A stretch of DNA of 64,000 nt. Source: Mycolicibacterium arabiense (lineage in GTDB: Bacteria; Actinomycetota; Actinomycetes; Mycobacteriales; Mycobacteriaceae). The first letter of the stretch is position 1; every line of letters starts with the position of its first letter. The stretch is taken from assembly GCF_010731815.2 (NCBI RefSeq), contig NZ_AP022593.1, forward strand, positions 1,116,001 through 1,180,000. Reading direction: 5' to 3'. Made by a program: the position numbers and the translations under genes. A model generated the notes under the pieces. The model searched no databases. It saw nothing but the letters and a program-made list of their open reading frames with translations, and had not been told where the DNA came from. Shown here piece after piece: positions 60,191 through 64,000 of the stretch.

Positions 60191-61675
60191 GTGGACCACC
60201 ACAGCGCGATGTCGGCGACCGACCTCGTCGAACTCAACCGCGAGATCCAGGGTTCCCCGACCATCCGGCTCCTGGCCACGCTGAACCTGGGCGTGTACGC
60301 CACGCTGATGGAACGCCACCTCAACGGTGGTGTGGTCGCCGAGACCGACCTGGTGGTCCGCTTGGAACGCGACCTCGACGAACTCGGCCGCCCGGGCGCC
60401 GAGCAATCGGGACTCGGTCTGATCAAGTCGTGGGCCAGTCAGGGGTGGCTGCACCGCGTGGCCGACACGCGTGCCGGGCACGAACGCAACCTCTGCTACC
60501 TCACGCAGGAGGCGCGCCGGGCGCTCGACCTGCTCCGCGGGATGCGCCGTCAGGACACCATCGCTACGGGCGGATCGATCAACGGCATAGCGTCGCGACT
60601 CAAGCAGATCGCCCTGCGCGTCGGCAACGACCCCGACCGCATCCGCGCCGGCATCGAAGCCGAGATCGAGGCGCTGCGCGCCGAACTCGACGACCTCGAG
60701 CGCGGGCACGTGCGCCCCGAGACCGAGGTCACCGACATGTACGACGAGGCGCACGCCATCGCGTTGCAGATGGAACGGCTCATCACCGACATCGGCCAGT
60801 ACGGGACCATGATCGAGCAGGCCACCGCCGCGCTCGGCGATCCGATCGACAGCAACGTCGAATACCGCGACCGGCAGCGCCAGATGTACGCCGACTACCA
60901 GGCGGCCTGGGACTCCCAGGGCCGGGACAGCCACCGTGCCTTCCTTCGCATGATCAACGATCCCGAGCAGCGCGCTGAGTTCGAGGCCGACGTCGCCGCC
61001 GTCGCCGAAGCGCTGCCCGCACTCGATCCCGCGCTGCGCACGGTGATGGCCGGGTTCTTCGAACTCGTCGGCCATCAGATCGACGAGGTCGAACGCATTC
61101 AGCAGCGGTGCGCGCAGCGCGTCAAACGCTTCACGGCCTTCGGCACCCTGGAGCAGAGCCGCGGCGTCGCCCGGCAACTCGGCGATGCCATCGGCGCGGC
61201 GCGCACCCTGCTCAAGGCGTCGCTGACGGACTCCCGGCTCGACATCGAGCTCCCGCTGGCCCGCCACGCGATCAGCTCGGTCGGTGCGCTCAGCTTCCGG
61301 ATCGGCGATCTGTCCCGCCCCCAGCCCGCGCACGCCGCCGAGGGCGAGGTGGACCTGCAGAGCTTCGCCGCACTGACCACTCAGGTCGACGCGCCCGCCA
61401 TGTCGGACATGATCAACTGCGCGATCATCGAAGGTCCGCTGGCGCTCGCGGACGCGGTCGACCTCGTCTCCGCCACCGGACAGGGTGCTTATCTGGGTCA
61501 CGTCATCGTGCTGTGGTCCTGGGCACTCAAGCAGCCCGCCGCGGTGACTGCCGACCAACCGACCGAAACGGTCACCGTGCGGTTCCGCTCGCTGGACGGA
61601 CGCGACCGCAAGATGGAGGTCCCCCAACTCGTGTTCACCGAACCGATCTCGAGCCTGGTCGCGGTGGCATCGTGA
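60191..61675 (+). CDS. jetA: Wadjet anti-plasmid system protein JetA (DUF3375)
   Basis: JetA is the kleisin-like subunit of the Wadjet complex, an SMC-type machine that recognises circular plasmid DNA by loop extrusion. The 494-residue product has the DUF3375 features: an N-terminal winged-helix region (SPTIRLLATLNLGVYATLMERHL; LERDLDEL; SWASQGWLHRV, YLTQEARRALDLLRGM), a long coiled coil (residues about 140-250) and a C-terminal helical and beta region. GTG 60191 follows AGGGAGG; an ATG six codons later is an alternative. A -10-like TATGTT (60142-60147) lies upstream in the 179-base gap. Its stop overlaps jetB by GTGA. First gene of the operon. Confidence 0.9.
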   Translation: MDHHSAMSATDLVELNREIQGSPTIRLLATLNLGVYATLMERHLNGGVVAETDLVVRLERDLDELGRPGAEQSGLGLIKSWASQGWLHRVADTRAGHERNLCYLTQEARRALDLLRGMRRQDTIATGGSINGIASRLKQIALRVGNDPDRIRAGIEAEIEALRAELDDLERGHVRPETEVTDMYDEAHAIALQMERLITDIGQYGTMIEQATAALGDPIDSNVEYRDRQRQMYADYQAAWDSQGRDSHRAFLRMINDPEQRAEFEADVAAVAEALPALDPALRTVMAGFFELVGHQIDEVERIQQRCAQRVKRFTAFGTLEQSRGVARQLGDAIGAARTLLKASLTDSRLDIELPLARHAISSVGALSFRIGDLSRPQPAHAAEGEVDLQSFAALTTQVDAPAMSDMINCAIIEGPLALADAVDLVSATGQGAYLGHVIVLWSWALKQPAAVTADQPTETVTVRFRSLDGRDRKMEVPQLVFTEPISSLVAVAS

Positions 61676-62370
61676 CCGTCGAACAGTCCCCCGACTACGC
61701 GGGTTTCTCGGCACTGCCCGACGTCGACTCGACCGCGAGGACCCCGCAGCGGCGACGGCCCAGGTTCGACGGTGACGTCAGTGAGCTACCCGACCGGGCC
61801 TGCTGGGCACTGCAGCATCTGCTCACCCGGCGCTACATCAGCGCCGAGACCGACCGCGACCTCTACACCTGGGTGCTCGAGTACCGCCTCCAGCTCACCG
61901 TGCGACTGTCCGAACTCGACCTCGTCCTGCGCATCGTCGAAGGCGCCGACGTCGCGTTCGTCGAGCAGGCCCGTTACGAATCGGCAAGGGGCGTCAAGCT
62001 GTTGCGGCGGGAGCCGCTCGGCACGTACGACTCGATTCTCGCTCTGCACCTGGCCCAGATGATGCGGGCATCCGGCGACCAGACCGTCCTCATCAGCCGT
62101 GACGAGGTGCACGGACTGTTCTCCGGCGTGCTCAACGACGTCGACCGCGACGCCGTGACGTTCGGTGCCCGCATCGACGCCGCCATCGCGCGACTCACCG
62201 GGCTCGAGATCCTGCGCAAGAGCCGCGACGACGAAGACAGCTACACCGTGAGCCCGGTGATCACCGCGGTGATGACGGCGTCGGTGATCGCCGAACTGCA
62301 GCAGCAGTTCGAACTGCTGCTCAGCGGCGGCACACCGGCTCCGCAGGACCAGGAAGCAGACTACGAATGA
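61672..62370 (+). CDS. jetB: Wadjet anti-plasmid system protein JetB (DUF4194)
   Basis: JetB is the KITE-like winged-helix subunit that bridges the kleisin and the ATPase heads. The 232-residue product fits DUF4194: ALQHLLTRRYISAETDRDLYTWVLEY, QARYESARGVKLLRREPLGTYDSILALHL in parts, and LISRDEVHGLF. The GTG at 61672 overlaps the jetA stop (GTGA) and its own stop overlaps jetC (ATGA), so the three subunits are made in coupled amounts. Confidence 0.9.
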   Translation: MTVEQSPDYAGFSALPDVDSTARTPQRRRPRFDGDVSELPDRACWALQHLLTRRYISAETDRDLYTWVLEYRLQLTVRLSELDLVLRIVEGADVAFVEQARYESARGVKLLRREPLGTYDSILALHLAQMMRASGDQTVLISRDEVHGLFSGVLNDVDRDAVTFGARIDAAIARLTGLEILRKSRDDEDSYTVSPVITAVMTASVIAELQQQFELLLSGGTPAPQDQEADYE

Positions 62371-64000
62371 CCGAGCAGTTCCACCTCTCCCGCCTGCAGG
62401 TCATCAACTGGGGCGTGTTCGACGGCTACCACTCCATCCCGTTCACCGAGGGTGGAGCGTTGATCGCAGGCGCATCCGGCAGCGGCAAGTCCTCACTGCT
62501 GGACGCCATCTCGCTGGGCTTCCTCCCCTTCAACCGCCGCAACTTCAACGCCTCCGGCGACAACTCGGCGGCCGGGTCGAGCGCGGGCCGCCGCACCGTC
62601 GACAAATACGTCCGCGGCGCATGGGGCCAGCGCAGCGACAACGGCGTCAGCCGGGTGATGTACCTGCGCGGCGACGGCACCGCCTGGTCCGCCATCGCCG
62701 TGACCTACGCGAGCACCACCGGCCGCACCGTCACCGGCCTGGTCCTCAAGTGGCTGACCGGTGAGAACCGGTCGGACTCGTCGAGCCGATTCGTCCTGGC
62801 CGACGGTGACCGCGACATCGAAGACGTCTGCAACCGCTGGGCAGCAGGCCGGTTCGATGCCGGCGTGTTCAAGGACCACTGGCGGTTCTCCACGAAGGTG
62901 GAGTCGCAGTATCTCGCGCAGCTCTACGCGACCATCGGCATCCGCGCCTCCGACGCCGCCCAGCAGCTGCTCGGAAAGGCCAAGTCGCTCAAGAGCGTTG
63001 GCGGGCTCGAGCAGTTCGTCCGGGAGTTCATGCTCGACGAACCAGACAGCCTCGCCAGGCTGCCGGAAGCACTCAAGCAGATCGACCCGCTGGTGGAGGC
63101 CAGGGAGCTGCTGGCCGTCGCGCAACGCAAGCGCAAGATCCTCGGCGACATCGAGAAGGTCCAGCAGCGGTATGCCTCCGAATCGTCGGACCTCGGCATC
63201 ATCGACCTGGTCGACCAGGCGATGGTCCGGGCGTACACCGACCACGAGCGGTTGGCTCGCTGCCCGTCGCAGATCACCTCGCTCGACGCCACCATCGACC
63301 AGCTCGGCAACGAATACGAGGACGTCACCCGCCAGCTGAACCTGGCCAAGGCCGAGGGAGATTCGCTCAACGCCCAGATCAGCGGGTCCAGTGCCAGCAT
63401 CGGGCCGCTGCAGTCACAGGTGGCAGGCGCCGAAGCCCAAGCCGAGGAGGTGTCGCGCCGGCGCGCCGCCTACGAGACGCTGGTGATCGCGCAGGGCCTC
63501 GACGTCCCCGACACCGCCGACGAATTCTGGAATCTGCGCGAGGAACTCGCGGCGCAGGCCAACGAGCTGCTCGCCAAACTGGACCGGGGGCGCGAGGCGT
63601 CGACCGACGCGGAGTACGCCCAGAAGTCGGCACGCCTCGTGCGCGACGAAGCCGCCAAGGAACTCAAGCGCGTCGAACACGTGGGGTCGGCACTGCCGGA
63701 GTTCGCCACCACGATGCGCGAACACATCTGCGCCGCAGTCGGGATCGATCCCGGTGAGCTGCCCTACGTCGCCGAGCTGATGGACCTGCGGCCCGACCAG
63801 AGCCGGTGGCGCGTCGCCGTCGAGAAGGTGCTGCGGGGCGTGGGGCTGCGGCTACTGGTCCCCGACCGGCACCACGCGGCCGTCCTGCGCTTCGTCAACG
63901 AGACCAACATGGGCGGACGGCTGCAGCTGCACCACGTGCGCTCGAGCCTCGCAGGCGCCGAACCCGCGGAGGCACAACCCAATACGCTGGCAGGCAAGCT
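62367..64000 (+). CDS. jetC: Wadjet anti-plasmid system ATPase JetC (SMC/MukB-like), cut by window edge
   Basis: JetC is the SMC-type ATPase that extrudes DNA loops. The visible 544 codons start MTEQFHLSRLQVINWGVFDG and contain the Walker A motif GASGSGKSS (residues 35-43) in an SbcC/MukB-like head. The D-loop, signature and Walker B motifs belong to the missing C-terminal head. Long coiled coil runs from about residue 220 (VEARELLAVAQRKRKILGD) through 460, then a hinge-like region begins (GIDPGELPYVAELMDLRPDQSRWR). The frame is open at base 64000. A full protein is usually about 1,100 residues, so roughly half lies outside, with any jetD nuclease after it. Confidence 0.9.
   Translation, partial: MTEQFHLSRLQVINWGVFDGYHSIPFTEGGALIAGASGSGKSSLLDAISLGFLPFNRRNFNASGDNSAAGSSAGRRTVDKYVRGAWGQRSDNGVSRVMYLRGDGTAWSAIAVTYASTTGRTVTGLVLKWLTGENRSDSSSRFVLADGDRDIEDVCNRWAAGRFDAGVFKDHWRFSTKVESQYLAQLYATIGIRASDAAQQLLGKAKSLKSVGGLEQFVREFMLDEPDSLARLPEALKQIDPLVEARELLAVAQRKRKILGDIEKVQQRYASESSDLGIIDLVDQAMVRAYTDHERLARCPSQITSLDATIDQLGNEYEDVTRQLNLAKAEGDSLNAQISGSSASIGPLQSQVAGAEAQAEEVSRRRAAYETLVIAQGLDVPDTADEFWNLREELAAQANELLAKLDRGREASTDAEYAQKSARLVRDEAAKELKRVEHVGSALPEFATTMREHICAAVGIDPGELPYVAELMDLRPDQSRWRVAVEKVLRGVGLRLLVPDRHHAAVLRFVNETNMGGRLQLHHVRSSLAGAEPAEAQPNTLAGK

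What the first reader, a model, noticed from the sequence alone, without database searches (positions are those of the whole stretch)
60191..64000. Type I Wadjet (EptABC-like) anti-plasmid operon at the right edge
Three genes with GTGA/ATGA overlaps encode DUF3375, DUF4194 and an SMC-like ATPase with intact Walker A. This order defines type I Wadjet. The same kind of locus (EptABCD) in M. smegmatis restricts plasmid maintenance and is known to be lost in easily transformed laboratory strains. If intact, it would explain plasmid resistance of this organism. Seen: gene order, couplings and motifs. Established: Wadjet/Ept activity. Inferred: that JetD lies just beyond the window.
Basis: partly seen in the sequence, partly recalled or inferred. 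Interest (0 to 1): 0.8.

Follow-up and report, generated by a model that had tools for sequence, protein, structure and literature searches.

The report
Wadjet motor operon without its nuclease
This mycobacterial operon encodes the three-part DNA motor of a known anti-plasmid system but not its DNA-cutting subunit, and about half of the mycobacterial species sampled keep it in this form, so it probably handles DNA in some way other than destroying plasmids.

Summary
The three genes are real and intact: jetA (DUF3375), jetB (DUF4194) and jetC (SMC-like ATPase, 1119 aa once read past the window edge). They overlap by GTGA and ATGA. The predicted jetD is not there. The jetC stop lies 11 nt from a convergent universal-stress-protein gene, and neither JetD domain matches in the 6.45-Mb genome.

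This is clade-wide, not a local loss. Of 396 genus genomes, 194 carry this jetC type (match at E=0) and 166 of those have no JetD match. In the other 28, JetD lies elsewhere, beside another JetC or alone. JetD models find none in 81 related loci (80 reach past jetC) but recover it in 39 of 40 control loci. The genes are under purifying selection and keep their ATPase motifs. On a JetC tree the clade lies inside JetD-bearing Wadjets. JetD-lessness arose at least twice (one origin rejected, AU p 1.5e-5); in the second lineage 18 of 24 loci carry an AlkZ-like DNA glycosylase gene in the jetD position.

A conserved promoter-like element with partial likeness to the DNA-damage RecA-NDp motif precedes jetA in many loci.

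Verdict: a disarmed, MksBEF-like relative of type I Wadjet. Plasmid destruction is unsupported; a chromosome or DNA-damage condensin role is the best guess, not shown.

The parts
60126..60147 (+). Promoter-like element upstream of jetA: TGTC (60126-60129), 12 nt, TATGTT -10-like hexamer (60142-60147)
   Evidence: Located; shared with the upstream regions of jetA in many related loci. Own copy matches 8 of the 12 specified RecA-NDp positions (counted by hand), so DNA-damage control is inference.
60191..61675 (+). jetA (mksF-like kleisin, DUF3375), GTG start, 494 aa
   Evidence: PF11855 E 1.7e-95; PDLC00459, 817 bits
61672..62370 (+). jetB (mksE-like KITE subunit, DUF4194), GTG start overlapping the jetA stop, 232 aa
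   Evidence: PF13835 E 1.4e-35; PDLC00472; translation
62367..64000 (+). jetC (SMC-like ATPase, mksB-like), ATG start overlapping the jetB stop; runs on outside the window to L002:9727 (contig C2:1181726), 1119 aa in all
   Evidence: Walker A inside the window, signature and Walker B outside

Best explanation
The locus is a complete three-subunit SMC motor (kleisin JetA, KITE JetB, ATPase JetC) of the type I Wadjet kind that has lost the nuclease JetD. It is a maintained, clade-wide lineage, not a broken Wadjet. Shown here by sequence: the subunits are intact and JetA and JetC are under purifying selection, JetD is not found in the operon or genome, the state is shared across the clade, and the clade lies inside JetD-bearing relatives. 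Inferred: JetABC still loads on DNA and translocates or extrudes loops with ATP, but no cut follows. It therefore works like an MksBEF condensin on chromosome or replicon structure, probably as an accessory to Smc-ScpAB and possibly raised under DNA damage, since the conserved upstream element partly resembles the PafBC-type (RecA-NDp) promoter.
For: No jetD downstream and no JetD domain in the genome at E 0.001 (best JetD protein match E 0.26). Genus: 194 of 396 genomes carry this jetC type (match at E=0), 166 of them without a JetD match. For each of the other 28 one JetD region was fetched, and none has this jetC beside JetD; the second JetD places of G204 and G332 were not fetched but lie on another contig or megabases away from the orphan jetC. 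JetD models: 0 of 81 loci, of which L026 stops inside jetC; control 39 of 40. Signature and Walker B in 80 of 80 jetC frames found, Walker A GxSGSGKSS in 79 of 80. dN/dS of JetC 0.03-0.14 in 12 pairs, of JetA 0.07-0.26 in 11 pairs. Tree: the clade is nested inside JetD-bearing sisters, and one origin of JetD-lessness is rejected. Where the operon is split (six loci), the separated jetB or jetC carries the same upstream element. Upstream core TGTC-N12-TAnnnT: 52 of 78 loci against 6 of 608 flanking genes. Precedent: Bohm 2020 contrasts C. glutamicum MksBEFG (plasmids) with P. [quoted passage not shown] PMC7485682 abstract and passages).
Against: No experiment bears on function. The operon sits in many unrelated chromosomal contexts and was not found in about half of the genus genomes, which is more typical of a defence gene than of a core condensin. 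Two JetD-less loci in a related genus lie beside type I methylase genes. The JetB N-terminal region is alike in JetD-bearing sisters and JetD-less members, so no loss of a JetD docking site could be shown. The window's own promoter element matches only 8 of 12 consensus positions; no -10 anchor was found for 11 of 78 jetA upstream regions. JetD-bearing Wadjets also carry such elements (17 of 36 loci with the core, some of them near-copies), so the element does not separate the two roles. Support for the clade is 84, below the program's star, and the program warns of long branches.
Confidence: 0.55

Rival explanations
1. It is still an anti-plasmid or anti-mobile-element system: JetABC recognises small circles by extrusion and either recruits an unrelated nuclease in trans or hinders plasmids without cutting, by trapping or compaction.
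For: Patchy distribution and variable genomic context; close kinship to JetABCD; the JetB N-terminal region is kept; two loci of a related genus lie beside type I methylase genes.
Against: No fourth gene is conserved beside jetABC: the largest neighbour family occurs at 13 of 81 loci and is an exonuclease III-like gene, which I take to be the housekeeping one. JetD is not enriched in genomes with the orphan (28 of 194 against 40 of 202, Fisher p 0.18). Few defence families among 139 neighbour representatives (capped list). In C. [quoted passage not shown]
Confidence: 0.3
2. A JetD is present but too divergent to be recognised, and the system is an ordinary Wadjet.
For: JetD-bearing loci in the genus are diverse: some share only about 25% JetC identity with the window.
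Against: An iterated JetD model found JetD in 39 of 40 control loci spanning these groups and in 0 of 81 orphan loci (L026 does not reach past jetC). Downstream of jetC is a convergent unrelated gene 11 nt away. Both JetD Pfam domains and a sister JetD protein are silent in the whole genome.
Confidence: 0.07
3. It is a decaying remnant of a Wadjet that recently lost jetD.
For: jetC is split in M. montefiorense (L034) and two of the genus matches listed (a cut list) carry one stop inside.
Against: The JetD-less type is found in 194 of 396 genus genomes, with intact ATPase motifs and low dN/dS, and the genes persist even where the operon is split by others.
Confidence: 0.03

Closest known systems
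Type I Wadjet JetABCD / EptABCD (M. smegmatis) / MksBEFG (C. glutamicum)
   Same: JetA, JetB and JetC families, gene order, intact ATPase motifs; PADLOC JetA1, JetB1 and JetC1 models match over nearly their full length; JetC detectably related to the solved JetC chains 8as8 and 8dk2
   Different: No JetD/MksG nuclease found in the operon or genome. M. smegmatis EptABCD was not compared sequence by sequence, because no named copy was fetched.
JetABCD sister group inside Mycobacterium (L151, L155, L156, L158, L161, L223)
   Same: JetC 48-52% identical; JetA 44-49% and JetB 45-53% for the five compared, L223 not among them; alike JetB N-terminal region
   Different: These have a JetD gene directly after jetC
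P. aeruginosa MksBEF condensin
   Same: Three-subunit Muk-like SMC complex beside Smc-ScpAB. That it lacks MksG is recalled and implied by PMC7083940, not tested.
   Different: Works on the chromosome there (PMC7485682, abstract and passages); orthology and role not tested here
JetABC with a downstream AlkZ-like gene in other Mycobacteriaceae genera (L224, L225, L228, L231-L245)
   Same: JetABC without JetD in the stretch or genome
   Different: JetC only 33-35% identical; an AlkZ-like gene follows jetC in 18 of the 24 JetD-less loci looked at (PF06224 checked in two, tblastn for the rest); separate origin on the tree

Membership tests
Type I Wadjet (JetABCD / EptABCD / MksBEFG) | JetA (DUF3375), JetB (DUF4194) and JetC in one operon in that order | tested here: met
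Type I Wadjet (JetABCD / EptABCD / MksBEFG) | SMC ATPase motifs in JetC (Walker A, signature, Walker B) | tested here: met
   (sequence motifs only, no activity measured)
Type I Wadjet (JetABCD / EptABCD / MksBEFG) | JetD/MksG Toprim nuclease gene next to jetC | tested here: not met
Type I Wadjet (JetABCD / EptABCD / MksBEFG) | JetD anywhere in the genome | tested here: not met
   PF09983 and PF11795 silent while C. glutamicum control rings; JetD protein best E 0.26
Type I Wadjet (JetABCD / EptABCD / MksBEFG) | JetD contact region at the JetB N-terminus | tested here: inconclusive
   N-terminal region alike in JetD-bearing sisters and JetD-less members; the IFDR motif of PMC10586767 could not be placed
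Type I Wadjet (JetABCD / EptABCD / MksBEFG) | Restriction of small circular plasmids | not testable with these tools
   Needs an experiment
MksBEF-type condensin without MksG | Three-gene kleisin-KITE-SMC operon without a nuclease gene | tested here: met
MksBEF-type condensin without MksG | Role in chromosome organization or segregation | not testable with these tools
   Needs an experiment
MksBEF-type condensin without MksG | Orthology to P. aeruginosa MksBEF | not tested
   No P. aeruginosa sequence was fetched; the tree holds Mycobacteriaceae rows and one MAG named Actinomycetota (L056)
PafBC / RecA-NDp DNA-damage regulon | TGTC at the -26 position with TAnnnT at the consensus spacing | tested here: met
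   Window 60126-60147; 52 of 78 related loci against 6 of 608 flanking genes
PafBC / RecA-NDp DNA-damage regulon | Full consensus tTGTCRgtg-8 nt-TannnT (PMC5656591) | tested here: not met
   Window site 8 of 12 specified positions (counted by hand); 20 of 78 related loci reach 10 or more against 6 of 608 controls
PafBC / RecA-NDp DNA-damage regulon | PafBC-dependent induction by DNA damage | not testable with these tools
   Needs transcript data

The most novel reading that the evidence does not exclude
Wadjet has been disarmed at least twice in the Mycobacteriaceae, and the JetABC motor was turned to DNA repair. In the lineage of this window, a nuclease-free JetABC under a DNA-damage-type promoter acts as a stress condensin. 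In the second lineage the motor was re-armed with an AlkZ-like DNA glycosylase. This would be a case, visible inside one bacterial family, of an immune SMC complex becoming a genome-maintenance machine.
Probability: 0.25. Interest if true: 0.82.

Novelty: new variant of a known kind. Interest (0 to 1): 0.6.

Why it matters
A review speculates that MukBEF and MksBEF may descend from a Wadjet-like defence system (PMC10586767, section 7 read); that section names no lineage in which the change can be followed. Here JetD-bearing and JetD-less JetABC are sisters in one genus, so what the motor does after disarming can be tested with close relatives. It also matters for annotation. Wadjet is reported as unusually frequent in Actinobacteria (42% of genomes against 7% elsewhere, PMC10482375 passages) and in the M. 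kansasii complex (662 of 665 genomes, PMC11316565 passages). If the detection rules accept three of four genes, which I did not check, part of such counts would be nuclease-free JetABC that cannot be assumed to restrict plasmids.

Tried and rejected
Exonuclease III as a replacement nuclease: an xthA-like gene follows jetC directly or closely at 13 of 81 loci (PF03372 checked in L072). The gene upstream of jetA at some of these loci looks like the GNAT gene that neighbours xthA in other mycobacteria (recalled), so I read this as jetABC inserted beside the housekeeping xthA, not a new partner. I did not test it further.

A gene hidden in split operons: at L033, L040, L042, L049, L051 and L052, other genes lie between jetA, jetB and jetC. 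By eye they differ from locus to locus, apart from a shared pair in L033/L040 and a shared set in L049/L051.

Defence-island context: 139 neighbour representatives, of 153 neighbour families, were scanned with PADLOC at E 1e-10. Only the first 25 of 154 matching models were shown: type I methyltransferase models match 2-3 members each, mad2 matches 3, PDC-S48 and a type II methyltransferase 2 each, PD-T4-6 and a type I specificity model 1 each. I made no comparison with other regions of these genomes.

JetB N-terminal loss: not found. The IFDR motif named in PMC10586767 could not be placed by sequence, so this test is inconclusive.

JetB dN/dS (0.51 for the window pair) is not used: several JetB frames were overlong and overlapped jetA in another frame. 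JetA and JetC frames also begin at the first possible start and may be somewhat long. PDB search with JetB gave two matches of E 0.8-1 to unrelated proteins, and with JetA none. NCBIfam has no match for JetA or JetB.

Full RecA-NDp membership of the promoter was tested and not met for the window copy. No comparison with named M. smegmatis EptABCD: the paper was not held and no named sequence was fetched.

No paper naming a JetD-less mycobacterial JetABC, or linking Wadjet with PafBC, turned up in search listings 13, 14, 17, 18, 42, 62, 63 and 82. These cover open-licence papers only, and I read listings, passages and one section, not whole papers.
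Full report
OBSERVATION. jetA is 60191-61675, jetB 61672-62370, and jetC starts at 62367 and runs off the window. The overlaps are GTGA and ATGA. Pfam gives DUF3375, DUF4194 and a P-loop AAA domain; PADLOC gives JetA1, JetB1 and JetC1. The window is G000:C2:1116001-1180000 of a 6.45-Mb genome in two contigs. Past the edge, jetC is complete at 1119 aa with signature and Walker B motifs, ending at L002:9727, window position 65726 if extended. The best-matching named record is Mycolicibacterium lacusdiani, JetC 98% identical.

NO JETD. 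The next gene ends 11 nt after the jetC stop on the opposite strand and is a universal stress protein. JetD_C (PF09983) and DUF3322 (PF11795) have no match in the genome at E 0.001, while the same searches ring in the C. glutamicum control. A JetD protein from a near JetD-bearing relative gives E 0.26 at best.

CLADE-WIDE. One scan of named species genomes found 147 relatives of JetC and kept 80 (L004-L083). With the window's own locus that makes 81, of which L026 stops inside jetC. Six JetD proteins from sister operons (two of them identical) find nothing better than E 1.6 in these 81 loci. An iterated JetD model finds none in the 81, against 39 of 40 JetD control loci. In 396 genus genomes JetD_C is present in 68 and a JetC relative in 235. 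Of those 235, 199 match at E=0; after removing five whose match belongs to the JetD-bearing sister type, 194 are counted as the orphan type (the match list is cut, so not every identity was seen). Of these, 166 have no JetD match and 28 have one somewhere; among the 202 other genomes 40 have JetD (Fisher p 0.18; handles copied by eye). For each of the 28 one JetD region was fetched. The JetC next to JetD, where there is one, is at most 51% identical to the window's in any region fetched, and in G049, G121, G154, G296 and G313 no JetC lies nearby. G204 and G332 have a second JetD place that was not fetched; it lies on another contig or megabases from the orphan jetC. The JetD-less state extends beyond the genus: an unnamed genus (g9) has many 55-58% identical JetC, and 11 of its loci examined at length have JetA and JetB but no JetD. 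Some g9 genomes do have a JetD elsewhere.

MAINTAINED, NOT DECAYING. Signature SGGEQ and Walker B LMLDEAF are present in 80 of the 80 JetC frames found in the 81 loci, and Walker A in 79 (L034 is a fragment). dN/dS is 0.03-0.14 for JetC in 12 pairs and 0.07-0.26 for JetA in 11 pairs. At six loci other genes lie between jetA, jetB and jetC, yet the subunits look intact where the locus covers them. Exceptions: jetC of L034 is split, and two listed genus matches have one stop inside.

ORIGIN. On a tree of 65 JetC proteins (quick search, SH-aLRT only, with long-branch warnings) the orphan clade (38 rows) lies inside JetD-bearing mycobacterial sisters (support 98 for the join, 84 for the clade itself, which is not starred). 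JetD-lessness needs two changes. Holding all JetD-less rows together is rejected (AU p 1.5e-5). The root is a midpoint, without outgroup, so loss rather than gain of JetD is the simpler reading but not proven. In the second JetD-less lineage an AlkZ-like DNA glycosylase gene directly follows jetC in 18 of 24 loci (PF06224 checked in two, the rest by tblastn); the other six (genus g30) have none. None of these 24 genomes is among the 79 with a JetD_C match.

CONTEXT. The nearest neighbours at 93 loci make 153 families from 224 genes, so jetABC sits in many places. The largest flanking family is at 13 of 81 loci and is an exonuclease III-like gene. Few neighbours match defence models (capped list).

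UPSTREAM ELEMENT. A shared element, roughly (A/T)TGTCSSCGCSGTGGCCTAT(C/G)TTGG, was found before jetA in 67 of 78 loci, its -10-like hexamer 32-71 nt ahead of the start; counting also seven copies before separated jetB or jetC, TGTC stands at the exact spacing in 58 of 74 (first seen). The core TGTC-N12-TAnnnT occurs within 140 nt in 52 of 78 loci and in 6 of 608 flanking genes (related loci are not independent). The spacing equals that of the RecA-NDp promoter, tTGTCRgtg-8 nt-TannnT (PMC5656591, passages), whose -26 part is bound by PafBC with the housekeeping polymerase (PMC11804915, passages). Against: the window copy (60126-60147) matches 8 of 12 positions, only 20 of 78 loci reach 10 or more, no -10 anchor was found for 11 of 78, and JetD-bearing Wadjets show such elements too (17 of 36). 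The consensus itself works in this genome: 36 sites with at most one mismatch against 7 for the reversed pattern; jetA is not among them.

HOW IT MOST LIKELY WORKS. Shown by sequence: a conserved kleisin-KITE-SMC motor without nuclease. From the literature: JetD/MksG is the plasmid-cutting part and JetABC the part that senses shape and size (PMC10123090, PMC10586767, passages); P. aeruginosa MksBEF works on the chromosome (PMC7485682, abstract and passages). Inferred: this motor loads on DNA and extrudes loops without cutting, as a condensin-like helper, perhaps under DNA damage. The main rival is a plasmid-hindering system with an unknown partner.

VERDICT. Not a complete type I Wadjet. A disarmed relative, MksBEF-like in composition. 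Novelty: a new variant of a known kind.

Noticed in passing
L224:8782-9846, L225:8791-9867, L228, L231-L245: In other Mycobacteriaceae genera an AlkZ-like DNA glycosylase gene (PF06224) sits where jetD would be, in 18 of 24 JetD-less loci; domain checked in two, the rest by tblastn.
   Followed up: partly
L144-L146, L149, L159, L162, L169-L171, L173, L175-L181: JetD-bearing mycobacterial Wadjet operons also carry RecA-NDp-like elements near the jetA start (17 of 36 loci with the core, some near-copies); several end a few bases before the start codon, which would fit leaderless transcripts.
   Followed up: partly
L157, L164, L165, L167: JetD or JetD fragments with no JetC nearby, possible remnants of decayed Wadjet operons.
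   Followed up: no
L211:10179-11741 and L213:3863-5605: Type I methyltransferase (HsdM) genes directly downstream of JetD-less jetABC in an unnamed related genus.
   Followed up: no
L002:13322-19760 (roughly 5-12 kb past the window edge): A ClpB-, DnaJ-, GrpE- and DnaK-like chaperone cluster on the minus strand, recognised by eye from the translations.
   Followed up: no
genome contig C1, about 434 kb: The genome has a second contig of about 434 kb (6451210 minus 6017160), possibly a large plasmid.
   Followed up: no
window 56718-57686: A manganese-catalase-like open frame, recognised by eye and not searched.
   Followed up: no
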